Shown piece after piece: positions 9,895 to 43,327 of a stretch of 64,000 nucleotides of DNA. Under the pieces are notes generated by a model. That model was not told where the DNA came from and made no database searches. It was given only the letters and a program-made list of their open reading frames with translations. Positions within the stretch are counted from its first letter, which is position 1, and the number at the start of each line of letters is the position of its first letter. Both the position numbers and the translations under genes were made by a program. This DNA is from Alistipes senegalensis (GTDB lineage: Bacteria; Pseudomonadota; Gammaproteobacteria; Burkholderiales; Burkholderiaceae_D). The stretch spans positions 484,279-548,278 of the forward strand of contig JAMPER010000001.1 in assembly GCA_023664945.1 (NCBI GenBank). The letters run 5' to 3'.

Positions 9895-9912
9895 TGACGG
9901 GAGAAAAACATG
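9895..9912 (+). promoter_or_regulatory. Ribosome binding site of the adhesin gene
   Basis: GACGGGAGAAAAAC precedes the ATG at 9910 and fixes the start of the long adhesin reading frame. No clear sigma-70 boxes were identified in the preceding 200 bases. Confidence 0.55.
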
Positions 9913-12900
9913 GCTCGCGCGGCATCTAAAGCAGTTGGAGAAATCCGTTCCATCAAAGGCACTGTCAAGGCGGTTGACTCACAAGGCAATGAAAGGGTGC
10001 TTTCGGCAGGAGACAAGGTTTATGCAGATGAAACCATTTTGCCCGGCGGCGAAGGCACGGCGCTTATCAGTATGCCGGGCGGCGGTTTTGCCACGGTGGG
10101 CGGCAATGATATTCTTGTGCTGGCCAACCTGTCCGGCGTATCGAATGGCGAAAACGCCATGGCTCCCGACCAGATACAGGCGCTGATTGCCGCCGGGGCT
10201 GACCCCTCCGACATTACCGATGCCACGGCCGCAGGCGGCTATGAGGAAGCGGGCGAGCCAGGGGAAGGGCAGCATGATTTTGTGGTGGTTGACCAGCTGG
10301 CCGCGCGCGGCAACCTGACGCCGGGCTTTGAAACGGGCACCTTCGGCGACATTCCTCCCCGGCACTGGGAATATGACGGCCGGTATCTGGAGGTGCCGGA
10401 AGATACTGCCGAAATCCCACGGGATCCCGGCATTAATGTGCCAGACCCGAAAGACCCAGAGCCGGTTGACCCGAATAACCCTGCCCTGCCGCCTGATGTA
10501 ACGGATGGGACCGCGACTGTTTGGGAAAGCCAGCTGAAGGGCGGTTCGGCCAATGACAGCGCAGAGAACAAAGCCATCGTAAAAGGCTCATTTAACGTTG
10601 CCGTCAACGGCGAGACCACTATCCTGACCGTAGGAGGAGAAAGCATAGAGGTAGATGCCGTAGGCAACGCCATTTTGGATAAAGCTGTTACTGTTGACAC
10701 TGGTAAAGGCATATTGACCATTACCGGCGTAAATGGCGGCGTAGTGGACTACACCTATAAGTTGAAGGGTGCTATTGATGCTGACGACAAGACGAATCCG
10801 GGAGAATACACCGATGACATTAGCGTGAGCGTTTCGCGCCCGGGAGAAGTGCCGGCAGCAACGGATACGCTGACGATTACCATTATTGACGATGTGCCGG
10901 CGGCCAAAGCGGACGAAGCGACGCTGAAAGAGACCGCAGACCAGGTGGCAAAAGAAGTTTCCGGCAACGTGCTGGGAGGAGAAGGGGCAGGAGCAGGAGA
11001 TGTTGCAGATGTACGGGGCGCAGATGGCGCAAAGGTCGTTGGCGTCCAGGCAGGAGACACAGGCACAGACCAGGATGGCGGTGATCTGACGGTAACCGGC
11101 CAATATGGCACACTGACTTTACATGCCGATGGGAGCTATACCTATACCCTGAATGCGGATTCGGTTACCGAAGCCATGGACGGCAAGACAGATGTCTTTA
11201 CCTACACGATTAAAGACGGTGACGGTGACCTGTCGCATACCACGCTGACCATTAACCTGGAAAATACGGGGCCGGTGCCGACTGTACCGGTGAATCCGGA
11301 TGATCCGACAGATTCGCACAAGATTGTGCTGGAATTAAAAGACGCTGATACACGAGACGGAGGCACATCGGAAAGCGGAGAGGTTACCGCAGACCTTTTT
11401 GACGGGCCGCAAGACTTTGATAGCGTCAAATTTGCAGATGACATGGATTTGGACGCTATCCATGTTGAAGGCGCAGCAGAAGGAGAAAGCTTTAGCTGGA
11501 CGGTGAACGGCAATACCCTGACCGGCGAAGGGACGAGCGGCAGCATTGTTACGGTTACCTTGGGCGGTATAGACAAAGACGGCAATGTCACCATGTCTGC
11601 AACGATGGAAAACGCCGCGCATCATGCAGACGGGAAGGACGATATTACTATAACGGGTATTGCTGTTACGGGAACCGATGCCGGCGGCAGCTCGGCAACG
11701 AACAGCAATGTGACGATTACTATCGTTGATGATGCGCCGGATATTAGCGCCTCGGAGGGTGATGCTTCTACCGGCTTTGGGAATATCGTAGAGCATAATT
11801 TTGTTGTGGAAGGCGGCACTGTTTCAACTGAAGCGGCTTTTAAAGATGCAGGCTGGGATTCAATTAATCTCGACTCAACTGATAAGCATGTCCGCTTTGG
11901 CACCCACAATGGGTTGCTGATTTACGGTTCCTCTGTCGAGTACACCTATAGTGAAGGCAAAGTTGATTCTGTAACCGATACGACGGGTAAAAATACAGGC
12001 GACAGCAGCGGGCGCTATCTTTCCCTTTCCGAAGACGGGCTTTCTGTGGGAGGCTCCAGTTCTTACGGCGGGCAGAACGATATTGCTGCCGGTTCAGAGT
12101 CACAGTATGCAGAATCCCTGATTCTGGAAACGGCAAACCGCTCTGTTTCCTATGGTATTGAGCTGGAACTGGGCCGGTTTGATGAAGGCGATACTGCGGT
12201 TCTTACTTTTTGCCTTACGCCGCAAAACAATGACGACAATTTCCCGGTTCTCACGAAGGTTATTACCTGGGATACGCCTGGAATAACGATAGAAAACGGT
12301 ATTGCCAAGATTACAATCGAGGTTCCTGACGGCTTTAACAAACTCTTTTTGAGTGCGGGCGAATCGACTGCAACGGGTGATGAGGCAGGGTTTACTTTGC
12401 GGGGCATCAATTACAGCCATCCGTATTCGCAGCATGAAGGAACGGTTGATGTGAAGCCTGGTGCAGACGGCATGGCCGAGGGCAGCCTGACCTGGGATTG
12501 GAGCGGGGTGAAAGCCCTGCTGAATGACGGCATTAAGGTGACCGGTTCGCCAGGCGCAGGGGACTATACGGTAGCGTGGAAAGTGCCCGGTGAAAATGGA
12601 ACCTACATTGACGTTTCCTCACTTGACGGGCTGGCTGCCGGGACTACCCTGATAGCTGTTTTGCAGGGGAACAACACGAACGGCGCTGTTTCTCTTGATG
12701 GCAATCCCCTTCTGGAAGCGACACTGGGAGCAGACGGTAAATGGAATATCAAGCAGGTCTATAACTTTACCTTGCCAGATGGTTCTGACCCACAGCTGAA
12801 TTTTACTTTTAGTGTAACGGACAAAGACGGCGATACCGCAGAGACAGATAATGTGAACGTTACACTGAATTCTCCTGCTGTTGATGAACGTTTTGACAAT

Positions 12901-15474
12901 GTGGATGTCGGTAAGTGGCCTGGCGGCAGCAATGATGCCAATAATCACGTTGGCGATTTCCTGCAAGGGGGACAGAGCGGGCAAACAGGCAACGAATTCA
13001 ATGACCTCCTTTTTGGCCGCGGCGGCAATGACCTGTTGTTTGGCGACAACTTCCAGGATAAAGATGGCAACGCATTAACAGCGGCCGAAGCATTGAAGGA
13101 AGCTTTTGGAGAGGGGATTTTTGAAAAGATAGAGGGAGGATATGAAGGATTCCTCCAGCATGTAGCGAATGCCGATCCGGATACAAACAAGAGCAATATT
13201 CTTCATAAGGATATTAGCGCAATTTCTGATGCCCTGAAGGGTATGCTGAAAGATGGCACGCTTGACGATGCCCTTGCCAAACTGGAAGGGCTGCAAGCGC
13301 CGAAAGGCGGGGATGATGCGCTCTTTGGCGGCCTGGAAACGGATATCCTTTTCGGAGGGGGCGGCAACGATTACCTTATTGGCAATGGGCAATATTCAAC
13401 GGATGTTAAGGATAAACAACCGGATACGGATATCCTGATTGGCGGCAGCGGCAGCGATATTATTGTGTATGACGCGGCTGATGCCATTATCCGGGGCGGC
13501 AGCGGCATTGATGTGCTGCTGGTGGGCAAGGATGACCAGATTGACCTGACACAACAAGGCATAACCAGCCGGGTCAACGGGATGGAGGTGCTGATTCGTG
13601 CAAACCATACCAGCCAGGTTACCCAGCTGGGGATTACCAGCCTGGAAGCGTTGAAAAATTATGGCGTGACCATTGACAGTGATACGCATACCATGAGCCT
13701 GGATATGAGCAAGTGGACGGATAAGGGTGATGGCAAATATGAGTACAAGGACGGTTCCATTACGCTGGAGACAACGCTTTCCACCCCCGCTACGCTTGAT
13801 AAGGGTTCGACACTGGTCTTTACCGAAGCGGGTTACCATCTGACTCCCGGCAATGCAGAGGAAATGGCAAACGGGGGGAATGTTATTGGGAGAGAATCTG
13901 ACACGGATCCTAATTACGTTGCCGGCACCGCAGGCAATGATACTTTTACCGGGGGCAGTGCCGATGATGTCATTTATGGCGATGCCAGCGGTACGCCAAC
14001 TTACAGTACTACCGAGGGCGTAGCCGGCGATTTGGCAGATAGTATTGGCAAGATATCTGCTTCCACACCTTCACGTATTATTACCCAGCTGATAGAAGGA
14101 AAAGGCAGATGGGTATCGAGTACAGATAATCTCAGGATTAATGATTCCAACCAAAATATCATTGACCGGCTGGAAGCTTTTGATGATGCTGTTGATGGTA
14201 AAGACATCTATGGCAAGGGGAATGACAACCTGACCGGCGGGGCTGGCCAGGACGTTATCTTCGGTATGGGAGGCAATGATTACCTGGATGGCGGCGCGGG
14301 CAGGGATGTGCTTTCCGGCGGCAGCGGCAATGATATTCTGGTTTATGACCAAAATGATTATGTCGTTTACGGGGGCAAAGGCATCGACGTGCTGCTGGCA
14401 GGCAAGGATGACAAGCCGCTTGCGGATTTGCTCAAGCAGGATGGCAAAACGATTAACCAGGTTGTTGGCGGTGTGGAAGTGCTGCTCAGGACGACCAAGG
14501 ACGCTGATCCCAGGAAGATGGGTATTACCAGCCTTAACGACCTGGCGCTGATTGGCGTGGTAATTTCCGGGGATTTGCTGGCTTTGGACAAGACCTGGAC
14601 GCTTGGTGAGGATGGCAAATATACCAATAATGACGGCCTGGTGCTGGAAGTTGCCGGGTTGGACAAGCAGGTTCTTCCTGATGGAGTAGAAGGAACGGTT
14701 TTTGCCAGCGGAGATTACCACGGCAACCCGGCTGCGGATATTGCGGATCTTCTGGGCACGATAACCGGCACGCATGACAATGATATTTTGTTTGGCGCGA
14801 ATGACCAGCAGGCGCTGGCTGATACCCTGGCCGGGTTGAAGGATGTTAATGTTGCCATTAATGATGCCAACAGTATCCGGAACAACCCGGATGCTGTGGC
14901 GGAAGCGCTTGAACAGGAAGGGGTTTCTTCCGGCGAGGGTGATACGCTGATTGGCAACGGCGGTGACGACGTACTCTTTGGCGGCCAGGGTAATGATGTG
15001 CTGCTGGGCGGAGACGGCAACGATATGCTCTTTGGCGGCAGCGGAGACGATGTGCTGATAGGCGGCAAAGGCAGTGATACTATGACCGGCGGCGCTGGCA
15101 GCGATACATTCAAATGGCAGGAAGGCGACCTGGACAATGGTTCGGTTGACAAAATCCTGGACTTTACGCTGGGCGATACGAAAGACGGGGGCGATGTGCT
15201 GGATATTTCGGATTTGCTTTCCGGCAGGCCGGAGGGGCTGGAAGGCAAGGATCTGATTGATGGAGGATATCTGAATTTCACGGATATCAAACAAAATGAT
15301 GATGGCACGACAACGCTCACGATTACGGTTGATACGGATGGCAAAGGTGAAGCGGCCGGAAGTGTTGAGCTGGCGCAGGTGACGGTGAGCGGACTCGGCG
15401 ACTTGAGCGGCGCAGCTGACCCGGCGCAGGAAATCCTGAACCAGCTGGTGAACAACGACCAGATTACGTTCTGA
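9910..15474 (+). CDS. lapA: LapA-type RTX adhesin with LapG cleavage site
   Basis: This 1854-residue giant secreted protein is a type I secretion substrate expected to hold cells to surfaces. Residues 1-110 form an N-terminal retention module without a classical signal peptide, followed by TAAG at residues 106-109, the dialanine motif cut by LapG proteases. A Pro/Asp-rich linker follows, then cadherin/VCBS-like repeats (about 200-610), a jelly-roll or lectin-like region (about 613-840), another repeat, and six clusters of RTX GGxGxD calcium-binding nonapeptides between about 1030 and 1735. The end is a hydrophobic/acidic type I secretion signal. It is small for a LapA (5000 or more residues in pseudomonads). 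The matching exporter, receptor and protease are encoded at 17162-25266, and a strong terminator follows the gene. Confidence 0.92.
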   Translation: MARAASKAVGEIRSIKGTVKAVDSQGNERVLSAGDKVYADETILPGGEGTALISMPGGGFATVGGNDILVLANLSGVSNGENAMAPDQIQALIAAGADPSDITDATAAGGYEEAGEPGEGQHDFVVVDQLAARGNLTPGFETGTFGDIPPRHWEYDGRYLEVPEDTAEIPRDPGINVPDPKDPEPVDPNNPALPPDVTDGTATVWESQLKGGSANDSAENKAIVKGSFNVAVNGETTILTVGGESIEVDAVGNAILDKAVTVDTGKGILTITGVNGGVVDYTYKLKGAIDADDKTNPGEYTDDISVSVSRPGEVPAATDTLTITIIDDVPAAKADEATLKETADQVAKEVSGNVLGGEGAGAGDVADVRGADGAKVVGVQAGDTGTDQDGGDLTVTGQYGTLTLHADGSYTYTLNADSVTEAMDGKTDVFTYTIKDGDGDLSHTTLTINLENTGPVPTVPVNPDDPTDSHKIVLELKDADTRDGGTSESGEVTADLFDGPQDFDSVKFADDMDLDAIHVEGAAEGESFSWTVNGNTLTGEGTSGSIVTVTLGGIDKDGNVTMSATMENAAHHADGKDDITITGIAVTGTDAGGSSATNSNVTITIVDDAPDISASEGDASTGFGNIVEHNFVVEGGTVSTEAAFKDAGWDSINLDSTDKHVRFGTHNGLLIYGSSVEYTYSEGKVDSVTDTTGKNTGDSSGRYLSLSEDGLSVGGSSSYGGQNDIAAGSESQYAESLILETANRSVSYGIELELGRFDEGDTAVLTFCLTPQNNDDNFPVLTKVITWDTPGITIENGIAKITIEVPDGFNKLFLSAGESTATGDEAGFTLRGINYSHPYSQHEGTVDVKPGADGMAEGSLTWDWSGVKALLNDGIKVTGSPGAGDYTVAWKVPGENGTYIDVSSLDGLAAGTTLIAVLQGNNTNGAVSLDGNPLLEATLGADGKWNIKQVYNFTLPDGSDPQLNFTFSVTDKDGDTAETDNVNVTLNSPAVDERFDNVDVGKWPGGSNDANNHVGDFLQGGQSGQTGNEFNDLLFGRGGNDLLFGDNFQDKDGNALTAAEALKEAFGEGIFEKIEGGYEGFLQHVANADPDTNKSNILHKDISAISDALKGMLKDGTLDDALAKLEGLQAPKGGDDALFGGLETDILFGGGGNDYLIGNGQYSTDVKDKQPDTDILIGGSGSDIIVYDAADAIIRGGSGIDVLLVGKDDQIDLTQQGITSRVNGMEVLIRANHTSQVTQLGITSLEALKNYGVTIDSDTHTMSLDMSKWTDKGDGKYEYKDGSITLETTLSTPATLDKGSTLVFTEAGYHLTPGNAEEMANGGNVIGRESDTDPNYVAGTAGNDTFTGGSADDVIYGDASGTPTYSTTEGVAGDLADSIGKISASTPSRIITQLIEGKGRWVSSTDNLRINDSNQNIIDRLEAFDDAVDGKDIYGKGNDNLTGGAGQDVIFGMGGNDYLDGGAGRDVLSGGSGNDILVYDQNDYVVYGGKGIDVLLAGKDDKPLADLLKQDGKTINQVVGGVEVLLRTTKDADPRKMGITSLNDLALIGVVISGDLLALDKTWTLGEDGKYTNNDGLVLEVAGLDKQVLPDGVEGTVFASGDYHGNPAADIADLLGTITGTHDNDILFGANDQQALADTLAGLKDVNVAINDANSIRNNPDAVAEALEQEGVSSGEGDTLIGNGGDDVLFGGQGNDVLLGGDGNDMLFGGSGDDVLIGGKGSDTMTGGAGSDTFKWQEGDLDNGSVDKILDFTLGDTKDGGDVLDISDLLSGRPEGLEGKDLIDGGYLNFTDIKQNDDGTTTLTITVDTDGKGEAAGSVELAQVTVSGLGDLSGAADPAQEILNQLVNNDQITF

Positions 15475-17161: not shown

Positions 17162-18340
17162 TTACCGTTCGGTAAGTGCCGAGGTTTTGGCCTTGAAGAT
17201 GGGTTTCAGGAGGTAGTTCATGATGCTTTTGCTGCCGGTTTTGACGCTGGCGGTAACCATCATGCCCGGTATGATGGAAAGCGGTTTTTCTTCGGTGCCG
17301 AGGTGGTTTTTCTTTGTGCGGATATGGACGAGGTAGAAGCTTTCGCCTTTTTCGTTGGTGATGGAATCGGCGGTGATGTTTTCGACTTCGCCGTCCAGTC
17401 CGCCGTAGATGGAGAAGTCGTAGGCGGATACTTTGACGGTGGCGGGCTGGCCGACTTTGAGAAAGCCGACGTCGCTTGGGCGGACACGGGCTTCAATCAG
17501 GAGGTTGTCTTCTACCGGGACGATTTCCATGACGTTCATGCCGGGCTGGATGACGCCGCCAACGGTGTTGACGGCAATGGTTTTGATGATGCCGTCAACC
17601 GGGGAGCGGATGGTGGTGCGGTCTAACCGGTCTTTTGCCGCGGTATCGGTTGCGGCTGCGCCTTCGAGTTTGCTTTTTGCTTCATCGAGCTGGGACTGGA
17701 GGCGGGGGATGGCAAGGCGCGTTGCCTCGATTTCGCCGTGCAGGTCGGATACCTGCCGCTGAAGGCGGAGGATTTCAACTTCGGAGACGACGCCCTGGGC
17801 AAGGAGGGGGCGGGAGAGCTGGAGTTCTTTGTTGATGTAGGAGTAGCTTCGCCTGAGCTGTGCCAGGCGGGAGTTTTTTTCAACGAGTTCCTGTTCGCGC
17901 TGTTTGACCTGTTCTTCCATGACCTGGAGGCCGGCGCGGCTTTCTTCGGCGGAGGAGGCGAAGCGGGTTTCATCGAGTTTTAAGACGATCTGGTTTTTCT
18001 TGACGATTTCGCCGATATGGACGGGGATGGCGGAAACGATGCCGCCTTCGAGGTTCTGGATGACCTGGACGTGGCTGGAGGGGATGATTTTCCCTTCCGC
18101 GGTGGTGATTTCGTCAAGCTGGGAGAAGCAGGCCCAGATGAAGGCCAGGATGAAAAGAATGAGGGTGAAGCGGACGATGAGCAGGCTGGCCCTGGGCGGG
18201 TTGAGGAAGAAGGCGGACAGCCGCGCGGGCATGAAGGGGATGTCTTCACGTACCGGCGCGTTGGGGTCGTTTGGCGGCAGTATCCAGTTTTTGAAGCGTT
18301 CGGCCCATGCGGCCTTTTTGCTGTCAGTTTTTTGCGACAT
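17162..18340 (-). CDS. lapC: Type I secretion membrane fusion protein (LapC)
   Basis: The 392-residue HlyD-family adaptor links the inner-membrane ABC exporter to the outer-membrane TolC-like channel. A cytoplasmic N-terminus is followed by one membrane segment (about residues 53-75), a long periplasmic coiled-coil hairpin, and lipoyl and beta-barrel domains (for example RSPVDGIIKTIAVNTVGGVI). The ATG at 18340 is chosen for the GGAGGA seven bases upstream. An upstream start would add 18 residues. It overlaps the end of lapB by 17 bases, so the two are co-translated. Confidence 0.92.
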   Translation of the reverse strand: MSQKTDSKKAAWAERFKNWILPPNDPNAPVREDIPFMPARLSAFFLNPPRASLLIVRFTLILFILAFIWACFSQLDEITTAEGKIIPSSHVQVIQNLEGGIVSAIPVHIGEIVKKNQIVLKLDETRFASSAEESRAGLQVMEEQVKQREQELVEKNSRLAQLRRSYSYINKELQLSRPLLAQGVVSEVEILRLQRQVSDLHGEIEATRLAIPRLQSQLDEAKSKLEGAAATDTAAKDRLDRTTIRSPVDGIIKTIAVNTVGGVIQPGMNVMEIVPVEDNLLIEARVRPSDVGFLKVGQPATVKVSAYDFSIYGGLDGEVENITADSITNEKGESFYLVHIRTKKNHLGTEEKPLSIIPGMMVTASVKTGSKSIMNYLLKPIFKAKTSALTER

Positions 18341-20504
18341 GAAGTTTTCCTCCGGATAGGGCCTGCATGACTTGTTCTTTGGGGCCGTCTGCAATGATTT
18401 GGCCGTTGTCCATGACGATTAAGCGGTTGACAAGCGCCAGAAGCGAGGTGCGGTGGGTGACGAGCAGCAGGGTGTGGTTTTCGAGCTGGGCGGCGAACCG
18501 TTTTTTGAAGTTTTCTTCCGAGCGGTTGTCCAGGGAGTTGCTGGGTTCATCCAGCACGAAGATGGGCGGATTCAGGAGCAGGGCGCGGGCGTTGGCAACG
18601 GCCTGGCGCTGTCCGCCGGAGAGCCCTTCGCCGCGCTCGCCGATGGGCATGCCGAACCCCTGGGGGTGGCGGTTGACAAATTCGGTGACGCCGGCGATCT
18701 GGGCGGCGCGCATCATGACGGCATCGTCAACGTAGGGCGCGCCCAGCACGATGTTTTCCTTGACGCTGCCGAAGAAAAGCATGACGTCCTGCGGGATGTA
18801 GCCGATGTTGCGCCGGAGGTCTGCCGGGTCGATTTGCTGGAGGTCAACGCCGTCTATCCAGACGGAGCCTTCGTTGGGCTCGTAGATGCCGAGGATGAGT
18901 TTTTCCAGGGTGGATTTGCCGGAGCCGATGCGGCCGATGATGCCGACGCGTTCGCCGGGGCGGATTTTGAAGGAGACGTTGTTCAAGGCGGCAACGGTCT
19001 GGCCCGGATAGGTGAAGGTGACGTTTCTGAATTCGATGGCGCCGTGCAGGAGGGGGCGGTGGATGTAGTTTTTGCCCGGGGTGCGTTCAACGGGCAGCTG
19101 CATGATGTTATCTACGCCCTGTACTGCCGAGCGCGCCTGGTAGTAGCGGGTGATGAGGCTGGCAACCTGGGCCAGCGGGGCGGTGACGCGGCCGGTGAGC
19201 ATGGAGCAGGCGATGAGCCCGCCCATGGTGAGCGAGAGGTTGGAGATGAGGTACACGCCCACGATGACGACGCCGATGTAGGCGAGCTGCTGGAAGAGCA
19301 TGGACTGGTTGACGATGGCGGTGGCGAGCAGTTTGGATTTGAGGCTCAGTTCGCTTTGTTCGCCGATGATGCGTTCCCATTTGCGCTGGGCGATGCCTTC
19401 GGCATCAACGGCCTTGATGGTGTCGATTCCGGTTAGGGTTTCTATCAGGGTGGCGTGTTTTTGGGAGCCTACGCGGAAGTTTTGCCGGATGACGCTCTGG
19501 AGCGGCCGTTGCAGGGCCAGGGCAACGATGACGATGACGGGGATGGCTGCCAGGGGGACCAGGACGACGGGGCCGCCAACCCAGAGGATGATGAGCAAAA
19601 ACAGGATGGTGAATGGCAGGTCGATTAAGGCTGTGATGGTGGCCGAGGTGATGAAGTCGCGGAACATTTCGAATTCATGCAGGTTGTTGGCCAGGCTGCC
19701 GACGGATTTGGGCCGGACGGCGGCTTTTAGCCCCATGATTTTTTCAAAGATGCTGGCGGAGAGGATGATATCGACCCGTTTCCCGGCTACATCGAGGAAG
19801 TAGGCGCGGAGGGTTTTCATGATGAGGTCGAATACGTAGATGATGAAGATGCCGATGGCGAGCACCCACAGGGTTTCATAAGCCTGGTTGGGCACGACAC
19901 GGTCATAGACGTTCATGGTGAACAGCGGGGTAATGAGCGCAAAGACGTTGATGAGGAAGGAGGCAATGAGGACTTCGGAATACAGCGGCCATGCTTTTTT
20001 GAAGACGCTCCAGAACCAGTGTTCATTCCCGGGGATGCCGTGTTCGTCTGCCCGGGCATCGAAGCGGAAGGCAGGACGGCAGAAGATGACGAAGCCATTG
20101 TAGAATCCGGCGAGTTCTTCGGTGCTCATGCGGGTTTCGCCGCTGCCGGATTCGGGCGAGATGAGTGTCCAGACGCCGGTTTCGCTTCTTGCCGTGGCAA
20201 CGCAGGCCCGGCCGTTTTTCAGGAGCAGGACGGCGGGGAAGGTCATGCCGGAGATTTCTTCCAGGGTGCGCTTGTTGATGCGCCCGCTCAGTTTTGCGCG
20301 GCTGGCGGCACGCAGGAAGAGTTCCGGCGTGAGCCGCCCGTTTTCAAGCGGCAGGCCGGCGGTGAGCGTTTGCGCCGAGTAAGGCTGATGGTAGAGCCGG
20401 GTCAGGATGACCAGGCAGTTGAGCAGCGGGTCGTCTGACAGGAGCGCTTCAAACGGTATTTTCCATTCCTGCGCTGCGGGGGTTTCCTGGGTGTTGTCTG
20501 GCAT
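18324..20504 (-). CDS. lapB: Type I secretion ABC exporter (LapB)
   Basis: The 726-residue inner-membrane ATPase should energise adhesin export. An N-terminal C39-peptidase-like domain (about residues 15-145) lacks the usual catalytic arrangement and probably only binds the substrate. Six membrane segments follow (about 165-440), then the nucleotide-binding domain with GRIGSGKST (Walker A), LSGGQRQAVANARALL (signature) and FVLDEPSNSLD (Walker B). It is the LssB/LapB type associated with large RTX adhesins. It precedes lapC and follows a small Lap-locus gene. Confidence 0.93.
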   Translation of the reverse strand: MPDNTQETPAAQEWKIPFEALLSDDPLLNCLVILTRLYHQPYSAQTLTAGLPLENGRLTPELFLRAASRAKLSGRINKRTLEEISGMTFPAVLLLKNGRACVATARSETGVWTLISPESGSGETRMSTEELAGFYNGFVIFCRPAFRFDARADEHGIPGNEHWFWSVFKKAWPLYSEVLIASFLINVFALITPLFTMNVYDRVVPNQAYETLWVLAIGIFIIYVFDLIMKTLRAYFLDVAGKRVDIILSASIFEKIMGLKAAVRPKSVGSLANNLHEFEMFRDFITSATITALIDLPFTILFLLIILWVGGPVVLVPLAAIPVIVIVALALQRPLQSVIRQNFRVGSQKHATLIETLTGIDTIKAVDAEGIAQRKWERIIGEQSELSLKSKLLATAIVNQSMLFQQLAYIGVVIVGVYLISNLSLTMGGLIACSMLTGRVTAPLAQVASLITRYYQARSAVQGVDNIMQLPVERTPGKNYIHRPLLHGAIEFRNVTFTYPGQTVAALNNVSFKIRPGERVGIIGRIGSGKSTLEKLILGIYEPNEGSVWIDGVDLQQIDPADLRRNIGYIPQDVMLFFGSVKENIVLGAPYVDDAVMMRAAQIAGVTEFVNRHPQGFGMPIGERGEGLSGGQRQAVANARALLLNPPIFVLDEPSNSLDNRSEENFKKRFAAQLENHTLLLVTHRTSLLALVNRLIVMDNGQIIADGPKEQVMQALSGGKLHVAKN

Positions 20505-20548: not shown

Positions 20549-20893
20549 TTAAAACAGGGTATCGTCCTGGACAAGGATGTCGCTGGTGTGTTCCAGTTTT
20601 TCACGTGCGCTTTTTTTGTTCAGGATTTTTTGCTGTGCGGCGGCGGGCAGTTCCGAAAAAAGGATGACGCCTTTTTGGGTGAGCAGGTCTATCAGGTCTT
20701 CCAGAATACGGATTTGCCGGAGATCCTGCATGAGCAGTTCCGCATGGCGCCGGTTTTGCCCGGCAGCGCTGCCATCGGCGAGAAATTGCATGATTTCGGG
20801 GTTGTCAAGGCCAAGCAGCTGGTCGTCCTCACGGATGGGTTCGGCTGTGAGGGCAATGATATCGCCTTTTTTGTTGCGTTGTACGTATGGCAT
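20549..20893 (-). CDS. Conserved small Lap-locus protein of unknown function
   Basis: The 114-residue protein starts MPYVQRNKKGDIIALTAEPI, with charged helical segments after residue 40 and no signal peptide or membrane segment. Similar small MPYVQR proteins, often annotated as tryptophan synthase beta subunit-like, accompany lapD and T1SS genes in related bacteria; that name comes from weak similarity and nothing here suggests tryptophan synthesis. It lies between lapD and lapB on the same strand with short gaps, so it is probably in the same operon. I take the ATG at 20893 over a TTG five codons upstream. Confidence 0.7.
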   Translation of the reverse strand: MPYVQRNKKGDIIALTAEPIREDDQLLGLDNPEIMQFLADGSAAGQNRRHAELLMQDLRQIRILEDLIDLLTQKGVILFSELPAAAQQKILNKKSAREKLEHTSDILVQDDTLF

Positions 20894-20923
20894 GGGCTGT
20901 CTTTGCAATGGGTTGTTTCTGTT

Positions 20924-22912
20924 TCAGGAAAGCGGCGCGTTTTTTTCTGCCTGGTTTGTCCAGGTTTCGGGGCGATGCAGTCCGTAGCCCTGCAATCCGT
21001 CCATGTGCAGTTTGACGGCGGTTTCCATTTCCAGCGGGGTTTCGATGGATTCGGCTATGACGAGGATATCCTGCGAATGTGCCATGCTGACGAGGATTTC
21101 CAGCATCCGCTGGTTGGTTTCGTTTTCGTTGATGCGGTTGATCAGGCTGCCGTCTATTTTCAGGTAGTCGGGTTTCAGGCCGCCCAGGGCGCTTAGCGAG
21201 ATGATGTTGCGGCCGAAGTGGTCGATGCCGAGGCCGACGCCGTAAGGCGCGACAGCCTGCCGGAAGGTCTGGATGGCGGGCAGGTTGCGTGCGGCGCTGT
21301 AGTCGTCCAGTTCAAGGAGGAGCTGTTTGGCCTCATCGGGATGCGCTTTCAGGAGCGCAGTAAGCCAGGCGACAAATTCGTGGTCGGATACGGATTGCGC
21401 TGTCAGGTTGACGGCGACTTTTTCCGGGGTATCGTCCCGGGCGGCGAGCTGCTTGAGTACGGTGGCGACGATGAGTTTGTCCAGTGAGGTTGCCAGGCCA
21501 TAATGGTAAACCATGGGGATGAAGAGGGAGGCCGGAATGAGCCTGTCTTTATCGGAGATGCGCAAAAGCACTTCGTGCTGCATGGGTTCGGATGGCGAGG
21601 CGGCTTTCATCGCCGTTTGTTTTAAGAGGGTGATGTTTTTGTTTTCGATGGTCCGGTTCAGCAGTTCGATCCACTGGGTGGCTGTCAGGGTATCAAATTC
21701 GCTGATCAAGCGGCTGTGGTAGTAATGGATGGCGTTGGGGCCTTTGATTTGAGCGGCCCTTAGCGCAATGTCTGTTTCGGAAAGGAATTCGGAAAGTGTC
21801 TGGTTGCGGTAGAAGGACAGGCCGATATGGCAGACTTCCGCAAAGGGGGTAATCTGTTTTTCGTTCAGGGCGGAGAGCGCTTCTGTGAGCGAGAGGCAGA
21901 AGTGCCGCGCCTGGATTTCGGTGACGCCGCTGATGGCAACGGCGAAGGTTGCGCCTGAAAGGCGGGCTGAAAGGGTGTCATGGGCGGCCAGCCCGGCGGT
22001 TTTGGCTTTAATGATTTGCGCCATGCTGCCCAAGAAGGTATCGCCTGCACGGTGGCCGGATTTCCGGTTGATTTCCATGAGGTGGGCGGCCTCGATGAAG
22101 AGGAGCACACCGGGGGCAAAGCCGGCATCCTGCTCAAGCATCTGTTGAAGGCGCATGTTGAAGTAGGCGCGGTTGGGCAGGCCGGTGACGTTGTCGGTAT
22201 AGGCCTGCCGGCGGATGTGCTGCAAGGCGGTTTCCTGCTGGGTGAACATTTCCCTGATACGGGAGGACATGAGGTTCATGGCGGAAACGACTTCGCGCAG
22301 TTCGCGTGTCCAGGGCAGGTTTTTCTGGATGACGTATTCTTTTGAGGAAATGGCTTCGGCCTGCTGCTGGACGGCTTTCAACGGGCGCAGGACGTAATGC
22401 AGCACCAGCATGACGAGGCCGAAAGCAACGGCAAAGCAGCACAGGAAAAGCCAGAAGAAGCGGACGCTGCCATCCCACAGGCGGATGTAGGCAAATTCCG
22501 GGTTGGCGCTGATTTTGACTACGCCTGCCTGGTTCCAGCCGTTCATGACAAGGGAGGTTCCCTGCGGGGTTTCCAGCGGGAAGAAGCTGATGAACCATTT
22601 GGGGACGTTTTCAACGTGGCGCTCGCCGGACAGTTCGAGGATGGTTGTGCCTTTGATATCGGAAACGATGATTTCACGGTAGTAACCGCTGTCGTAGAGT
22701 GCGCTGACATGGCTTTCGATCATGGCGGTATTGTTTTCCGCCATATAGGGCGACAGGGTCAGCCCCAGTGAGGTTGCCACATCCTGGGAGATGCTGTTTA
22801 GCTGGTCGTTCAGGTAGGCGCGGGTATGCTGGATGTTGATGCTGAATGTTCCGATGAACAGCAGCAGGAACAGTATGGCGATGATGAGTGTCAGTTGTCG
22901 CCGCAAGGTCAT
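20924..22912 (-). CDS. lapD: c-di-GMP receptor LapD
   Basis: The 662-residue inner-membrane protein should bind c-di-GMP inside the cell and hold LapG in the periplasm. Domains in order: membrane segment (about 5-27), periplasmic sensor with the MNGW motif matching the LapG-binding Trp of LapD, second membrane segment, HAMP (about 175-230), degenerate GGDEF (SGATF in place of GGDEF) and degenerate EAL (HEVLLR in place of EAL). Both catalytic motifs are lost, as in known LapD proteins, so it is a receptor rather than an enzyme. An upstream start would add 16 residues; I chose MTLRRQL. Confidence 0.93.
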   Translation of the reverse strand: MTLRRQLTLIIAILFLLLFIGTFSINIQHTRAYLNDQLNSISQDVATSLGLTLSPYMAENNTAMIESHVSALYDSGYYREIIVSDIKGTTILELSGERHVENVPKWFISFFPLETPQGTSLVMNGWNQAGVVKISANPEFAYIRLWDGSVRFFWLFLCCFAVAFGLVMLVLHYVLRPLKAVQQQAEAISSKEYVIQKNLPWTRELREVVSAMNLMSSRIREMFTQQETALQHIRRQAYTDNVTGLPNRAYFNMRLQQMLEQDAGFAPGVLLFIEAAHLMEINRKSGHRAGDTFLGSMAQIIKAKTAGLAAHDTLSARLSGATFAVAISGVTEIQARHFCLSLTEALSALNEKQITPFAEVCHIGLSFYRNQTLSEFLSETDIALRAAQIKGPNAIHYYHSRLISEFDTLTATQWIELLNRTIENKNITLLKQTAMKAASPSEPMQHEVLLRISDKDRLIPASLFIPMVYHYGLATSLDKLIVATVLKQLAARDDTPEKVAVNLTAQSVSDHEFVAWLTALLKAHPDEAKQLLLELDDYSAARNLPAIQTFRQAVAPYGVGLGIDHFGRNIISLSALGGLKPDYLKIDGSLINRINENETNQRMLEILVSMAHSQDILVIAESIETPLEMETAVKLHMDGLQGYGLHRPETWTNQAEKNAPLS

Positions 22913-23002
22913 GACATGGTCTCCGGATGTGGCGTGCGCATGGCAGAATAAGGCAGGCAATAGCCGGTTTTGTGCCGTTTTTCCTGATGTGTCCGGCCGG
23001 GA

Positions 23003-23698
23003 TTATTCAAATTCCTGCTCCATCCTGTTTTGTATTTCTTTCCAGAACCTGATTTTACTTGAGTTTCCGACACGTCCCAAATTGCTTGATTTGACTACCC
23101 AGAGGTCGCTGCCGTTAAAGGCGTAAACCGGCGTCAGGTCGGTACGCTGGCTGGCCGGTTTGATCTGGCGGTTCAGGTTGTCCAGAATGAGGGGGACGGC
23201 TCCCGGCTGCGCATAGTAGGCCAATACCATGTGCGCAATGGTGGACTGGTTGACTTTGGCCTGGACGTAGGTAATTTTCAGTTTGTCCATGCTGATGCCC
23301 AAGGCGGCCAGTGTGACGTATTTGGCAATGGCATAGTCTTCGCAGTCGCCGCCGTTGCTGGCGAGCATTTCGGCCGGTGTTGCCCAGTAGTCGTTTTGTT
23401 TCCAGTGCGCGAGGTCGGAAACATAGGGAATGGTATTGAAGAAATCGTTGACGGTTTTCAGTTTTTCCTGTTCCGGCCTGTTTTGGGTGTTTTGCATCAT
23501 GGTTGCCCAGTCTTCCAGGCGTTTTTTCGCCCCAAGGCCGTAACGGCTTGTCATGCTGCTGATAACCGCCGCTTTGAGCCGGGGCAGGGAACTTGCGGCA
23601 TGGAGGAGGGCGGAAAGCAGAAATGCCGCTGCCAGCACGGCAAGAAGGTGTCTGAAAAAAAAGGGTTTTCTGTTTTTTTTCAGACAGGGCTGGCACAT
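23003..23698 (-). CDS. lapG: LapG periplasmic cysteine protease
   Basis: The 231-residue transglutaminase-like protease cuts LapA-type adhesins at a dialanine site, releasing them. An N-terminal hydrophobic segment (about residues 14-34) directs export. The catalytic triad is visible as Cys in GGDCEDYAIAKY, His in STIAHMVL and Asp in LILDNL. It lies directly upstream of lapD on the same strand. The first codons contain A8 and T8 runs inside a perfect inverted repeat, making the reading frame a candidate for slippage. A matching TAAG site is present in the adhesin at residues 106-109. Confidence 0.93.
   Translation of the reverse strand: MCQPCLKKNRKPFFFRHLLAVLAAAFLLSALLHAASSLPRLKAAVISSMTSRYGLGAKKRLEDWATMMQNTQNRPEQEKLKTVNDFFNTIPYVSDLAHWKQNDYWATPAEMLASNGGDCEDYAIAKYVTLAALGISMDKLKITYVQAKVNQSTIAHMVLAYYAQPGAVPLILDNLNRQIKPASQRTDLTPVYAFNGSDLWVVKSSNLGRVGNSSKIRFWKEIQNRMEQEFE
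23650..23685. repeat. Perfect inverted repeat with A8/T8 runs at the start of lapG
   Basis: GTCTGAAAAAAAA (23650-23662) and TTTTTTTTCAGAC (23673-23685) are exact inverted 13-mers with a 10-base loop, located in codons 5-17 of lapG. The hairpin and homopolymers could affect translation or promote slipped-strand mutation. Confidence 0.8.
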
Positions 23699-23806: not shown

Positions 23807-25266
23807 TTATTCGTTCGGTTTTTGGCCGGCCATTTCCTTAAGAGACTGTTTCCGGTTCATTTCCCTTTGCAGCCAGCTTTCTTCCCGTTTTTCGTAGTCT
23901 TTCTTGCTCCAGCGGTTGCTGTGTTCGACTCTTTCTTTTGCGTTGGCTTCTTCCGGCGGATTGACGCCCAGCGAGGACAGGAGCAGGCCTTCGTCTGCCA
24001 TGAGCCGGTACCGGGCGAACAGTTCGAGGTAGAGCCCGTTGGTGTATTCCACTGTGGAGGTGTAGTACTCGTTTTCGGTATCCAGCAGGTCGATCAAGGT
24101 CCGTTGGCCGATGACAAACTGTTTGCTGTAGGCATCTCTTGTGGAGCGGCTTGAATCGGCATGGTCACGCAGGTTTGGCAGCCTGCTTTTGGCAGACTGG
24201 TAGGTGTTCCAGGAGTAGCTGGTGCTTTCGTCAAGCTGCATCTGGGTCCGCTTCATGATTTCCATGGCCTGGTAGAGGAGTTGTTTGGTTTCGCCTACCC
24301 TGGCGTTATCTGCCCCTCCCCTGATGAGGTTCCAGTTCATGCGGACCATGACGTATTTGTCATCGTTTTCCCCTCTTAATCCGCCGGAGTTGTCTATGTA
24401 GTCCATGCCTGCCTGAAGGTCGAATCTCGGGCCGAAGGCTGATTTTGCCGCGTTATGCTGGGCGCGGGCTGCCTCTATATCGGCTTTGGACTGTTTTAAG
24501 AGCGGGTTGTTTTCCCTTGCCGTGTCCATGGCGTCTTCCAGGTTTTGCGGCATGAAGTCATCGCCCGGGCCTTCCGGCTGGATGAATTCATCAGGACGCA
24601 TGCCGGTGTTGCGCTGGTAGGCGATTTCAGCGTCTCTCAGGTTGGCTTCCGAAGAGACGAGGTTGGATTTTGCCAGTGCCAGGCGGGCGGCGGCCTGGTC
24701 AACGTCTGATTGCCTGCCGACTCCCGCATGGGCTCTCATGCTTATCTGGTCGTAGGTTTTCTGGTGGTTTTGCAGGTTTTCCCGGGTAAGGCGCACGATT
24801 TCCCTTAGCCTTAACACATCCAGGTAGGATTCAACGACTTTCAGGGCTATTTGTTCTGATGAGCCTTGCACTTTGTGGGCGGCGGATTCCATCCGTGCCC
24901 GGTTGCGGTCAACTTCGTATTTGGTGGCGAAGCTGTCAAACAGCATTTGCTGGAGGGTGATGCCTTTTTCATGGCGGGTGAGGGTGTCGCTCCAGTGGTA
25001 GCCGGTGTTGCTGTTTAAGGCTTTTTCCCGTCCTGCTCCCCAGTTGACGTCAACCCGGGGCAGGTAGCCGCTGTATGCGCCTGCCAGGGCTTCATCCACT
25101 GACCGGCGGTAGCGGGAATCTATCGCTATATCGGGGTTGTCTCTCAAGGTGTAGTCAACGGCGGCTGTCAGGGTGGTTTGGGCACAGGCAATGCCTGATG
25201 CTAATGTTATGGACGCCGCAAAAAACAGGGAGGTTGCCCGGGGGGCAGGAAGTTTTTAATTTTCAT
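23807..25266 (-). CDS. lapE: TolC-family outer-membrane protein (LapE), frameshifted in its signal peptide
   Basis: The outer-membrane channel partner of LapB/LapC. From TTG 25147 a 446-residue frame encodes the two TolC repeats with long coiled coils (about residues 30-215 and 230-400) but lacks a signal peptide. One is encoded directly upstream: from ATG 25266, MKIKNFLPP is in one frame, and the hydrophobic ATSLFFAASITLASGIACAQ is in the lapE frame, with a C6 run (25240-25245 on the minus strand) at the junction. One extra C would join them into a typical exported TolC protein. A C10 run lies one base before the ATG. Either the gene is phase-variable and currently off, or the sequence has a homopolymer error. 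Confidence 0.85.
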
Positions 25267-25267
25267 C

Positions 25268-25277
25268 GGGGGGGGGG
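25268..25277. repeat. Homopolymer of ten G (C10 on the lapE strand)
   Basis: Ten consecutive G on the plus strand lie one base before the lapE ATG on the minus strand, where a ribosome binding site would be expected. Such tracts change length by slippage and could alter lapE translation. Confidence 0.9.
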
Positions 25278-25420
25278 AGAAATCCCCTTTATGAGTTGTT
25301 TAACATATTGTTAAATATTACAGGATTTTGCCGTCAATTTGAATGGGCCGCATGAGGGCTTCCGTCACGGGCTGACGCATGGTGGCGGGGTTTGCGGGCA
25401 AAAATTCAGGAAAGCGGGGG

Positions 25421-26257
25421 ATGGGGATGCTGATTAAGCGGAAATCGGTGGAAAAGGAGGCGGCCTTGCGCCGTCCGGAGGAAAAACCGGCAAAAGGGGG
25501 GCGGCGCAAGGTTCGTTTTGCGCCGGTGATTCTTTCGGAGTGCGGCGGGGTGCGTTATCTGCATTTCGGGACGGAATGGGTGCAGGGGGCGATGCGGATT
25601 CGCGATCCGTACCGGCTGGAATTGGCTTATGCCCGCCAGATGATGGCCTGGATGTTGTTTGGCAGGCAGCCGGGGCATATTGTGCAGTTGGGCCTGGGGG
25701 CAGGGGCGCTGACCCGGTTTTGTTACCGGTATTTCCCGCAGGCGCGGGTGACGGCGGTGGAGCTGAATGAAGAGGTGACGGCAGTTTGCCGCTCGATGTT
25801 TGCTTTGCCGCCGGAGGATGGCAGGCTGGCGGTGGCAGAAATGGATGCGATGGATTTTGTGGCTGAAGCGCCGTCCGGTTCGGTTTCGGTGATACAGGCG
25901 GATTTGTTTGATGCGACTGATCTTGGGCCTGTGCTGGATATGCCGGCATTTTATGCCGCGTGCGCCCGCTCTTTGGAAGAGGAGGGGGTGCTGGCGGTGA
26001 ATCTTTTCGGCCAACATGAAAGTTACCCAAGGAATTATGAGGCGATAGCGGCGGCTTTCCCCTGTGTTTTGACGCTGCCGGCCTGCCGGGAAGGCAATGT
26101 GGTGGTGCTGGCCATGAAGAAAAGGCCGGTGCCGGAGCAGGAGGCGCTCAGGGAGCGGGCGCGGGCTATCCGCCGGGAAACGGGGCTGGCGCTTTTGAGG
26201 TGGGCTGACGGGTTATACCGGGCGCTTTCGGCAGCATCGGAGCCAGGGCAGGGGTGA
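25421..26257 (+). CDS. Spermidine synthase-like methyltransferase-fold protein
   Basis: The 278-residue protein has the Rossmann core of the spermine/spermidine synthase family: HIVQLGLGAGALTRFC (motif I, about residues 85-100), RVTAVELNEEVTAVC, and VIQADLFD. The polyamine synthase aspartates are not clearly preserved, so the substrate is unknown. A basic N-terminal stretch (KRKSVEKEAALRRPEEKPAK) has no signal peptide. AGGA nine bases upstream supports the ATG at 25421; an ATG at 25427 or an upstream one at 25379 are alternatives. It is divergent from lapE and precedes the malonate decarboxylase operon by 113 bases. Confidence 0.75.
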   Translation: MGMLIKRKSVEKEAALRRPEEKPAKGGRRKVRFAPVILSECGGVRYLHFGTEWVQGAMRIRDPYRLELAYARQMMAWMLFGRQPGHIVQLGLGAGALTRFCYRYFPQARVTAVELNEEVTAVCRSMFALPPEDGRLAVAEMDAMDFVAEAPSGSVSVIQADLFDATDLGPVLDMPAFYAACARSLEEEGVLAVNLFGQHESYPRNYEAIAAAFPCVLTLPACREGNVVVLAMKKRPVPEQEALRERARAIRRETGLALLRWADGLYRALSAASEPGQG

Positions 26258-31495: not shown

Positions 31496-32424
31496 GGCGG
31501 ATGCTTTTTATGTTTCCGGGGCAGGGAGCGCAGTATCCCGGTATGCTTGGGGAGCTGGGCAAGACGCTGGATTGCCGTTTATGGTTTGACCGGGCCAGCG
31601 AGGCATTGGGAGAGGATGTGGCGCAGCTGGATACGCCGGAGGCGCTGAAACGAACCCGTGCTGTTCAGTTGTGTATCCTGGTTGCCGGAGCAGCCTGCGC
31701 AGACTGGCTGATGCGGGAGGAGGGTGCGCCGGATTTTGTTTCCGGCCTTTCTATCGGCGCGTTTCCGGCGGCGGTGGTTTCCGGTGCGCTCGGGTTTGAG
31801 GAGGCTGTCCGCCTGGTTTCATTGCGGGGGGAGCTGATGGAGAATGCCTGTCCGGCCGGGTATGGGCTTTCGGCTGTCGGCGGTCTTCCCGAACGGGTGG
31901 TGGCGGCGCTGGTAAAGGCTGTCCATTCGCCGGATTGCCCGGTTTTTCTGGCGAATTTCAATGCGGCAGACCAGTTTGTGATTGCCGGGGCGGATGAGGC
32001 GATGCGCCGGGTGCTGGAAAAGGCGCGGGAAGCGGGCGCAACGGTGACGGAGCGGCTGGCGGTGGCGGTACCTTCCCATTGCCCGCTTCTGGAGGAGGCT
32101 TCCCTTCGTCTTGGGGAGGCGATGCGCCGCGTTTCATTTAAACGGCCATCTGTTGCTTATTTGAGCGGCAGTACGGGCCGGGTGCTGTGGCAGCCGGAGC
32201 GCATTGCGGATGATTTGGCGGGCAATATGGCGCGGCCGGTCCGCTGGGCTGATGCCATGACAGCGGCTTATGAGCGGGGGGTACGGCTGGCGGTGGAGAT
32301 GCCGCCTGGTTCGGTGTTGACCGGGCTGGCAAAACGGGTGATGGACGGGGGGGAGGCGCTTGCCTGCGACCGGCGGGAGGCCGTCCCGCTTTTGGGGTTG
32401 ATCCGGCGGTTAAGGTGCGGTTGA
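31492..32424 (+). CDS. mdcH: Malonyl-CoA:ACP transacylase of malonate decarboxylase
   Basis: MdcH primes the carrier protein with malonyl from malonyl-CoA. The 310-residue protein is of the FabD fold with the GQGAQYPGM motif (about residue 8), active-site serine in VSGLSIGAFPAAV (about 84) and the catalytic His in VAVPSHCPLL (about 195). It is the last gene of the mdc operon and converges with the LysR gene, the two frames overlapping by 15 bases. Confidence 0.94.
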   Translation: MRRMLFMFPGQGAQYPGMLGELGKTLDCRLWFDRASEALGEDVAQLDTPEALKRTRAVQLCILVAGAACADWLMREEGAPDFVSGLSIGAFPAAVVSGALGFEEAVRLVSLRGELMENACPAGYGLSAVGGLPERVVAALVKAVHSPDCPVFLANFNAADQFVIAGADEAMRRVLEKAREAGATVTERLAVAVPSHCPLLEEASLRLGEAMRRVSFKRPSVAYLSGSTGRVLWQPERIADDLAGNMARPVRWADAMTAAYERGVRLAVEMPPGSVLTGLAKRVMDGGEALACDRREAVPLLGLIRRLRCG

Positions 32425-33354
32425 TTCTGTTGGCGCGGGGCTTGCCTGCCGGCGGGCCATCATGCGCGCTTCGGCTACGAGGGCCAGTATATCCGGATCG
32501 CGTTCGCGGTTTTTGGGGAAAACCAGTGCAACGGTCTGGCTTTTGCGGTATTTTTCCGCCAGGCTGACGAGCCTGACGGAGCTGGCGAAGGCTTTTCCGA
32601 TGCGGCCGGGAACCAGTGAATAGCCGACGCCTGCCTGTACCATGTTCATCAGGGAGAAGATATCGTTCAGCCGGGTGACGATAAGCGGTTTGTAACCGGC
32701 TTCTTCAAAGGCATCACGGAATTGCTGTGCGGTGGCGAAGCCGTCGTTTAATGTCACGAATTTTTCCCCGCGCAGGTCGGCCAGGTCGGCCGGTTCCCTG
32801 ATATGTTCCGATGCGGTGAGCGGCACAGCCAGGTAAAAGGAATCTTCAAAGAGGGGCAGGGCAGCCAGGCCGGCTGTTTCTGTTTTTTTGCCGGGAAGCG
32901 ACATGAGGACGGCATCAAGCTGGCTGTCTTTTAACTGGGCGAGCAGGTTGCGCCCGGCATTCATGGAAAGATCAATTTCCATTTCAGGGCGGCGGCGTTT
33001 CAGCCCCATGATCAGCTGCGGCACGATTTCTGCTGTCAGTGAGTACTGGCATCCCAGTTTCATCCTGCCGTTGCCAAAACCGGCCGCTTCGCGTGTGGCG
33101 TCTATCAGGCGTCGGACGGAAAGCAGGGTTTCCCCGGCATGGCGTGCCAGGGTTTGTGCGGCGGGAAGCGGCCTCAGATTTCTGCCATCCTGCACGAAGA
33201 GCGGGCATCTCAGGACGGCTTCAAGGGAATGCAGGGCACGGTGGACGCTGACGCCGCTCATGCCCAGGGCTTCTGCCGTGCGCGCAATGTTTTGCCGCTC
33301 CATGAAGGCCAGGAAAATTTCCAGTTTCCGGATGGTCAGGTCGCTGTCGATCAT
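32410..33354 (-). CDS. mdcR: LysR-family regulator of malonate decarboxylase (MdcR-like)
   Basis: The 314-residue protein has an N-terminal winged helix (about residues 8-68: TIRKLEIFLAFMERQNIART, then AEALGMSGVSVHRALHSLE) and a C-terminal LysR effector domain. MdcR regulators near mdc genes respond to malonate. Here the gene is convergent with mdcH rather than divergent from mdcA, so it controls the operon from its far end if it does. I use the ATG at 33354; a TTG at 33399 would add 15 residues. Confidence 0.85.
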   Translation of the reverse strand: MIDSDLTIRKLEIFLAFMERQNIARTAEALGMSGVSVHRALHSLEAVLRCPLFVQDGRNLRPLPAAQTLARHAGETLLSVRRLIDATREAAGFGNGRMKLGCQYSLTAEIVPQLIMGLKRRRPEMEIDLSMNAGRNLLAQLKDSQLDAVLMSLPGKKTETAGLAALPLFEDSFYLAVPLTASEHIREPADLADLRGEKFVTLNDGFATAQQFRDAFEEAGYKPLIVTRLNDIFSLMNMVQAGVGYSLVPGRIGKAFASSVRLVSLAEKYRKSQTVALVFPKNRERDPDILALVAEARMMARRQASPAPTESTAP

Positions 33355-33395
33355 TTTGTTGGAAACAGCTTGTTGTTCTCCTGTGGCTAGAGGGA

Positions 33396-40938: not shown

Positions 40939-41185
40939 GGCTTCAGGCAGAAAGGATGAAAAAACGGCAGTGGAACGGGCTTGTCCGGTATGGCAGGTTG
41001 TTTTTCCTTTTCCACGGGGGATTTCCTGTTGCCTGGCGTTTCCTGGTTCGTCTGTTCTTTCCAGGCCAGTATAGCCGGTTATACCGCCTTGTGCGGGTAT
41101 TCTTCTGCCTTTTCTGTGTTGATTCGGGTGATGGGCAAGGAGGCGGGTTACTGCGCCGGAAAATTCCCGGGAGGGAAGGTGGCTA

Positions 41186-41222
41186 CGTCCCCGTGCTGCC
41201 AAAAGGCGGATTCACGGGGACG
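41186..41222. ncRNA. Candidate structured RNA element
   Basis: CGTCCCCGTG pairs perfectly with CACGGGGACG. Inside is a second small GCC-AAAA-GGC hairpin. It stands about 100 bases upstream of a terminator in a gene-free region, so it could be part of a small RNA. A riboswitch match was considered and not supported. Confidence 0.3.
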
Positions 41223-41295
41223 CCAGTCACGCTACTAAGGAACAGTACAAAACACAATGCCTGCCAGGAGAGTAAATGCCTGCATTGTGAAGAAG

Positions 41296-41340
41296 CATGA
41301 TGTCCGCAAAAATGGCTGATTTTGCGGGAATCATGTTTTT
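41296..41340 (+). terminator. Rho-independent terminator in the gap upstream of oxlT
   Basis: CATGAT-GT-CCGCAAAA (41296-41311) pairs with TTTTGCGG-GA-ATCATG (41320-41335) around an 8-base loop, followed by five T. No gene ends just upstream on the plus strand, which suggests an unannotated transcript. Confidence 0.7.
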
Positions 41341-43224: not shown

Positions 43225-43250
43225 TATTTCACTCAAATATCCAGTTAACT

Positions 43251-43278: not shown

Positions 43279-43327
43279 ACAGCCGGGAAGCCGGTCTCAC
43301 CAAATAGCCAATTGAGTGGAGAAACGT

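What the first reader, a model, noticed from the sequence alone, without database searches (positions are those of the whole stretch)
25238..25277. lapE signal peptide is split by a frameshift at a C6 run, next to a C10 run before the start codon
Minus strand from ATG 25266 reads MKIKNFLPP, then leaves frame at six C (25240-25245). The lapE frame upstream of codon TTG 25147 encodes ATSLFFAASITLASGIACAQ with no start codon. One added C joins both into a typical exported TolC signal. Ten C lie one base before the ATG, where the ribosome binding site should be. Without a signal peptide the outer-membrane partner of the Lap exporter cannot reach its site, so adhesin export would be off. Homopolymer slippage is a known phase-variation mechanism, though I know of none described for lapE.
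Basis: partly seen in the sequence, partly recalled or inferred. Interest (0 to 1): 0.82.

Follow-up and report, generated by a model that had tools for sequence, protein, structure and literature searches.

The report
Frame-broken adhesin-exporter gene beside C-tract
In this gut oxalate-eating bacterium, the gene for the outer pore that exports a sticky surface protein is out of frame at its start and has a run of ten C in its ribosome-binding spacer, so it looks switched off, but reversible switching is not shown.

Summary
In this Oxalobacter genome the lapE start ATG (25266, minus strand) opens a 19-codon frame, and the conserved LapE frame has no start before inner codon TTG 25147. Six of six Oxalobacter relatives with a close lapE have an in-frame signal, so this allele is off as assembled. 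Mature LapE is under purifying selection (dN/dS 0.083). Against the one sister genome compared, no other conserved gene core has a net frame break, so the break looks recent and probably real.

The C6 explanation is weak: the run is short, absent in relatives, and the missing base cannot be placed in it. The C10 tract is the better slippage candidate. It lies inside the AAGGGG-to-ATG spacer (17 nt here; 20 nt with C11 in the sister; 5-8 nt and no tract in five others). It cannot change the frame, and folding predicts no switch by one base.

In passing, several Oxalobacter genes, many surface-related, carry C9-C26 tracts; some split the frame, some differ between sister genomes. This fits poly-C contingency loci; my searches found no report for the genus. 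Interest is moderate; reads are needed.

The parts
25268..25277 (-). C10 tract inside the Shine-Dalgarno-to-ATG spacer of lapE; C11 at the same place in the sister genome
25284..25289 (-). AAGGGG, Shine-Dalgarno-like; 17 nt from ATG (7 nt if the tract is not counted)
25207..25266 (-). ATG and the 19-codon frame that ends at TAA: start of lapE as assembled
25240..25245 (-).
23807..25255 (-). open LapE frame (TolC family outer-membrane part of a type I exporter) without a usable start; signal-like codons up to about 25178
23003..23698 (-). lapG, periplasmic cysteine protease (Peptidase_C93)
20924..22960 (-). lapD, LapD/MoxY periplasmic domain with GGDEF and EAL
18324..20504 (-). lapB, type I secretion ABC permease/ATPase (TIGR03375, 1007 bits)
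17162..18394 (-). lapC, HlyD-type adaptor (TIGR01843, 340 bits)
9910..15474 (+). RTX adhesin of 1854 aa with N-terminal LapA retention module and C-terminal type I secretion target

Best explanation
lapE of this Oxalobacter genome is an off allele. A single-nucleotide indel in the signal-peptide codons puts the start ATG out of frame with the rest of LapE. No LapE with a signal should reach the outer membrane, and the RTX adhesin should not be exported or held at the surface; translation of lapGDBC downstream may also suffer by polarity. The locus also carries a slippage-prone C tract inside the ribosome-binding spacer, shared with the sister species but of different length, which probably lowers or tunes lapE translation through spacing. 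I take lapE to be one of a set of poly-C contingency (phase-variable) loci in Oxalobacter. Shown: the broken frame, intact relatives, the tract in two sister genomes only, purifying selection. Inferred: loss of adhesin export, tuning by the tract, reversibility.
For: Frame and tract. Six of six relatives with a close lapE (G007, G011, G003, G006, G001, G008) have in-frame signal peptides. Purine-rich site to ATG: 17 and 20 nt with tract, 5-8 nt in five relatives without it. lapE mature part dN/dS 0.083 over 458 codons against the sister. Among 33 ORFs aligned to the sister (some are shadow frames), no other conserved gene core shows a net frame break; odd gaps near gene ends are listed in the full report. 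Tracts in other genes: a GT9 gene reads through with C10 here and is split with C9 in the sister; two sulfatase-domain genes are split at runs of 9 and 10; an acyltransferase gene in HOxBLS has C14 near its start; O. formigenes HC-1 has five tracts of C22-C26. Precedent for a homopolymer in a leader changing translation: espR of M. tuberculosis (PMC11898584, passages).
Against: Only two genomes carry the tract, one of them a metagenome assembly, and no within-species variation was seen. C10 is not in the reading frame. Folding shows the G of AAGGGG paired at all lengths 4-16 and mostly paired (mean unpaired 0.06-0.10) even with no tract, so a change of one base is not predicted to switch access; in one tract-free relative (L008) the GG is paired too. 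C6 is short and not conserved. C-run number in the window is not above shuffled chance. Runs of C14 or more occur also in 15 of 110 genomes of other genera in the family.
Confidence: 0.42

Rival explanations
1. An ordinary, non-reversible loss-of-function indel in lapE, for example picked up during laboratory passage of an isolate grown in broth, where surface adhesin is not needed. The C tract is incidental.
For: The break is in one genome only, at or near a short run, and five of seven lapE genes have no tract. If the genome is O. paeniformigenes OxGP1, it was grown in oxalate broth.
Against: Low dN/dS shows only that any loss is recent; the locus has a tract shared with the sister, and other genes of the genome have tracts.
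Confidence: 0.27
2. Sequencing or assembly error of one base at or near the C6/GGG hairpin; lapE is intact in the organism.
For: A small GC hairpin (25234-25248) lies exactly there; lapE is otherwise conserved and under selection.
Against: No other net frame break in the conserved gene cores compared. If the genome is OxGP1 (1.93 Mb; here 1,927,671 bases), it was sequenced with Illumina MiSeq, where a six-base run is rarely miscounted (recalled).
Confidence: 0.2
3. One reading: reversible slippage at the C6 run itself turns LapE export on and off. (This overlaps with the best explanation, of which it is one special form, so the odds do not add to 1.)
For: The break lies at or next to the run. 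A seven-base run is a variable site in M. tuberculosis (7G upstream of espR; PMC11898584, passages).
Against: The run is absent in the six relatives; the missing base is placed at 25237 by the aligner and cannot be localised; C/G runs of six are common in the window (16 of exactly six).
Confidence: 0.13
4. LapE is made despite the assembled frame, by ribosomal or transcriptional slippage at the C run or by a rare non-standard start codon.
For: A run of C followed by GGG is a possible slip site (inference); the gene is under purifying selection.
Against: No such run in relatives; no ATG, GTG or TTG in frame before 25147.
Confidence: 0.06

Closest known systems
Lap adhesin system of Pseudomonas fluorescens (LapA, LapEBC, LapG, LapD)
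   Same: All five accessory genes are present together; the adhesin has the retention module and RTX repeats. System as described in PMC6890996 (passages).
   Different: lapE is out of frame and has a C tract in its ribosome-binding spacer. LapD and LapG score below the NCBIfam equivalog cut-offs (460 of 1020 and 223 of 320 bits).
Homopolymer phase variation of surface genes (Neisseria, Campylobacter, Helicobacter; PMC5084427, PMC8437040, PMC2715451, abstract starts in listings)
   Same: Poly-C/G tracts in or just before surface-type genes, some splitting the frame, in several Oxalobacter genomes.
   Different: No length variation within one strain has been seen here; the lapE frame break is not in the long tract.
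espR 5' leader homopolymer of M. tuberculosis (PMC11898584, passages)
   Same: A tract in the leader, proposed to act on translation through access to the ribosome-binding site.
   Different: There the tract is 144 bp upstream and its effect was measured; here it is in the spacer itself and folding predicts no effect of one base.

Membership tests
Lap (LapA-type) adhesin export system | RTX adhesin with N-terminal retention module and type I secretion target | tested here: met
   NF033682 61.9 bits (cut-off 50) and TIGR03661 32.2 bits (cut-off 17.6)
Lap (LapA-type) adhesin export system | type I exporter parts LapB, LapC, LapE | tested here: met
   TIGR03375, TIGR01843 and TIGR01844 all above cut-off; LapE has no usable start in this assembly
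Lap (LapA-type) adhesin export system | LapD c-di-GMP receptor and LapG protease | tested here: met
   Pfam LapD_MoxY_N, GGDEF, EAL and Peptidase_C93 above gathering scores; NCBIfam equivalog cut-offs not reached
Lap (LapA-type) adhesin export system | LapG cleaves the adhesin next to the retention module | not tested
   A TAAG sequence is seen near residue 107 of the adhesin; the motif is recalled and the cleavage was not tested
Homopolymer phase-variable (contingency) locus | tract in or before the gene that is long beyond chance | tested here: inconclusive
   C10 number is within shuffles, but the place is shared with the sister (C11) and the tract is absent from five relatives
Homopolymer phase-variable (contingency) locus | tract length differs between close relatives | tested here: met
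   C10 and C11; one pair of genomes only, at species distance, lengths as assembled
Homopolymer phase-variable (contingency) locus | length change turns expression on or off | tested here: inconclusive
   spacer changes, but predicted access to AAGGGG does not
Homopolymer phase-variable (contingency) locus | reversible variation within a clone | not testable with these tools
   no reads or further strains of the species were available in the collections that I searched

The most novel reading that the evidence does not exclude
Oxalobacter, a harmless gut oxalate degrader, runs a genome-wide set of poly-C contingency loci over its surface sugars, a sensor kinase, a possible outer-membrane protein and the Lap adhesin exporter. 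In the lapE lineage a C tract has grown inside the ribosome-binding spacer, so adhesion is set both by c-di-GMP (LapD/LapG) and by random changes at lapE.
Probability: 0.35. Interest if true: 0.66.

Novelty: new member of a known kind. Interest (0 to 1): 0.42.

Why it matters
Oxalobacter is considered as a supplement against kidney stones (PMC9812493, abstract start), so its adhesion and persistence in the gut matter. If surface genes and adhesin export switch at random, cultured strains may be locked in an off state, which could bear on poor colonisation. It would also put a c-di-GMP-controlled adhesin under a second, genetic on/off control. The last two points are inference.

Tried and rejected
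Rejected: a start at TTG 25147 (inside the mature protein of relatives, no signal). Rejected: reading through the C10 tract in the LapE frame (a stop, TAA 25258-25256, follows the tract in that frame). Rejected as a simple switch: occlusion of AAGGGG by the C tract, since predicted pairing hardly depends on length. The promoter scan of 25200-25500 found none, so it is not known whether the tract could act on transcription. Runs of C14 or more occur in 4 of 13 Oxalobacter genomes; those in G002 and one in G008 (L121, L122) look like assembly junk or a contig end and were not counted as evidence. Long C runs are not special to the genus: 17 of 116 family genomes have C14 or more, 2 of the 6 Oxalobacter and 15 of the 110 others. 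The listing of tract frames was cut in the middle (parts of L101 and L102; their pieces were printed), and one search listed only part of its places.

Paper searches: 'Oxalobacter formigenes' with 'phase variation' gave 1 paper, a biofilm review, not on the point by title and abstract start; 'Oxalobacter' with 'phase variable' gave 0; 'lapE' with 'phase variation' gave 34, 20 listed, none on lapE switching by title or abstract start, one of them (PMC6890996) looked at in passages; lapA, lapG, lapD with 'phase variation' gave 6, none on switching of lap genes by title; with Oxalobacter and repeat terms listed 20 of 834, all with 0 occurrences of Oxalobacter; PMC9812493 on Oxalobacter genomes has 0 occurrences of 'homopolymer', 'adhesin' and 'biofilm' in its main text; leader-tract searches are.

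Full report
What it is. The window is G000:C8:484279-548278 of a 1,927,671-base genome in 16 contigs. That this is OxGP1 is my inference; that strain was sequenced by Illumina MiSeq and assembled with SPAdes/Unicycler.

The locus. On the minus strand lie lapE, lapG, lapD, lapB and lapC, and further on, on the plus strand, an RTX adhesin of 1854 aa with a LapA retention module and a type I secretion target. Among 13 Oxalobacter genomes including this one, 7 have a close lapE (E below 1e-170) and 6 have only distant TolC relatives (four of those six are less than 90% complete).

The frame. The start ATG at 25266 leads into a frame of 19 codons. The LapE frame is open from 25255 but has no ATG, GTG or TTG before TTG 25147, which lies where relatives have mature protein. 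All six relatives with a close lapE have an in-frame signal peptide with an A-x-A-like end before Q (read by eye, no signal-peptide program was run). So 1 of 7 is broken.

Real or error? Against the sister genome, 33 non-overlapping window ORFs of at least 80 codons with a match were compared, some of them shadow frames; ORFs in the unaligned part 40660-45070 were left out. Together with the list of gaps, lapE is the only gene with a net frame break inside a conserved gene core that I can see. Other odd-length gaps are paired and compensate each other, lie between genes, or lie at gene ends: the end of the ORF 25379-26257, the first codons of ORF 32410-33399, and 49686, a few codons after the first ATG of ORF 48634-49698. 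ORF 53012-54610 changes frame in front of its conserved part. ORF 40057-41211 has only fragmentary matches and cannot be judged. Seven of the 33 have at least one stop in the matching sister frame, which I did not follow up. The mature part of LapE has dN/dS 0.083 (458 codons); the other eight genes gave lapB 0.085, lapC 0.102, lapD 0.241, lapG 0.229, mdcA 0.060, 39016-40059 0.143, 51202-52959 0.073 and ORF 48634 0.99. The gene was therefore probably in use until recently.

Where is the break? The aligner puts it at 25237 and not in the C run, and the stretch around it is too diverged from the sister to decide. The relatives have no run of C there. The C6 run is one of 16 C/G runs of exactly six in the window.

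The C10 tract. AAGGGG (25289-25284) lies 17 nt before ATG here, and 20 nt in the sister, where the tract is C11. The other five lapE leaders have a purine-rich site, chosen by eye, 5-8 nt before ATG and no tract. Without the tract the spacers would be 7 and 9 nt. The simplest reading is that a C tract arose inside a normal spacer in the common ancestor of the two. By number alone, C10 runs are not beyond chance in the window. Folding pairs the G of AAGGGG almost fully in both natural leaders, but this holds for all lengths 4-16, and nearly so with no tract; the GG of the tract-free leader L008 is paired too. Folding gives no support for a switch by one base, so only the spacing argument is left.

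Other tracts. This genome has 14 C/G runs of nine or more (counted). By stop-to-stop frames around the tracts (output partly cut) and Pfam: two sulfatase-domain genes (L090 run of 9, L093 run of 10) and one GDPD-like gene (L090 run of 10; below the Pfam cut-off) are split at the tract; a GT9 gene reads through with C10 here and is split with C9 in the sister (L091, L112); a GT2 gene carries a run of 11 (L091). Not all 14 are in such genes: several lie between genes (for example L087, L095, L096), and one of nine in a 657-aa frame has the same length in the sister (L092, L109). In five places where I matched tracts of nine or more in both genomes by eye, lengths were 10/11 (lapE), 10/11, 10/9, 10/10 and 9/9, so 3 of 5 differ. 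Matching asked for a tract in both, so sites that lost the tract are missed. O. formigenes HC-1 has five tracts of C22, C24, C25, C26 and C25; one splits a sensor-kinase gene (L100) and one lies 58 nt before a 696-aa protein with a signal-like start by eye and no Pfam match above cut-off (L098). HOxBLS has C14 near the start of an acyltransferase gene, in frame (L115). Such tracts resemble contingency loci of Neisseria and Campylobacter. Tract lengths in assemblies may be wrong by a base or more, and I saw no reads.

How it would work. As assembled, lapE gives no exported LapE, so the adhesin should stay inside (inference from the LapA pathway as described in PMC6890996, passages). Ribosomes stop after 19 codons, which may also lower lapG-lapC by polarity (inference). 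A second TolC-like gene exists in the genome (21% identity); whether it could stand in for LapE was not tested. A small length change could undo or redo the off state, and C-tract length may tune initiation through spacing. None of these steps is shown.

Verdict. Observation confirmed, interpretation partly supported. Known kind of mechanism, possible new gene target and genus.

Noticed in passing
L097-L101 (O. formigenes HC-1 contig, G003:C1 near 611481, 959706, 1385869, 1567472, 1756543): Five C tracts of 22-26 bases; one splits a sensor histidine kinase gene, one lies 58 nt before a 696-aa protein with a signal-like start. Possible phase-variable loci of O. formigenes.
   Followed up: partly
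L090 3046-3054 and 4604-4613; L091 2994-3003 and 7991-8001; L093 2988-2997 and 3216-3225: C/G tracts of 9-11 in sulfatase-domain, GDPD-like, GT9 and GT2 genes of the window's genome; three genes are split at the tract. L093 has one tract 9 nt before an ATG and another inside the gene.
   Followed up: partly
window 44006-44015: Second C10 tract of the window, about 90 bases before a LysR-type regulator (44105-45043) that follows an oxalate/formate antiporter gene (41953-43224; TIGR04259 486 bits). Both C10 tracts of the window are preceded by TTTCT.
   Followed up: no
L085 4714-4724 (G007:C11:334713-334723): In the sister genome a C11 tract lies about 0.9 kb past lapC, next to a 100-base scaffold gap, on the side where the adhesin gene would be.
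   Followed up: no
window 20552-20923 (-): A 124-residue frame between lapD and lapB, 91% identical and open in the sister genome; may be an undescribed gene of the operon.
   Followed up: no
L089, L090, L091, L093, L097, L099, L100, L115, L140, L143: Many C tracts inside genes follow TA or TTA (not all), while those in leaders such as lapE, L087 and L088 follow CT. Cause unknown.
   Followed up: no
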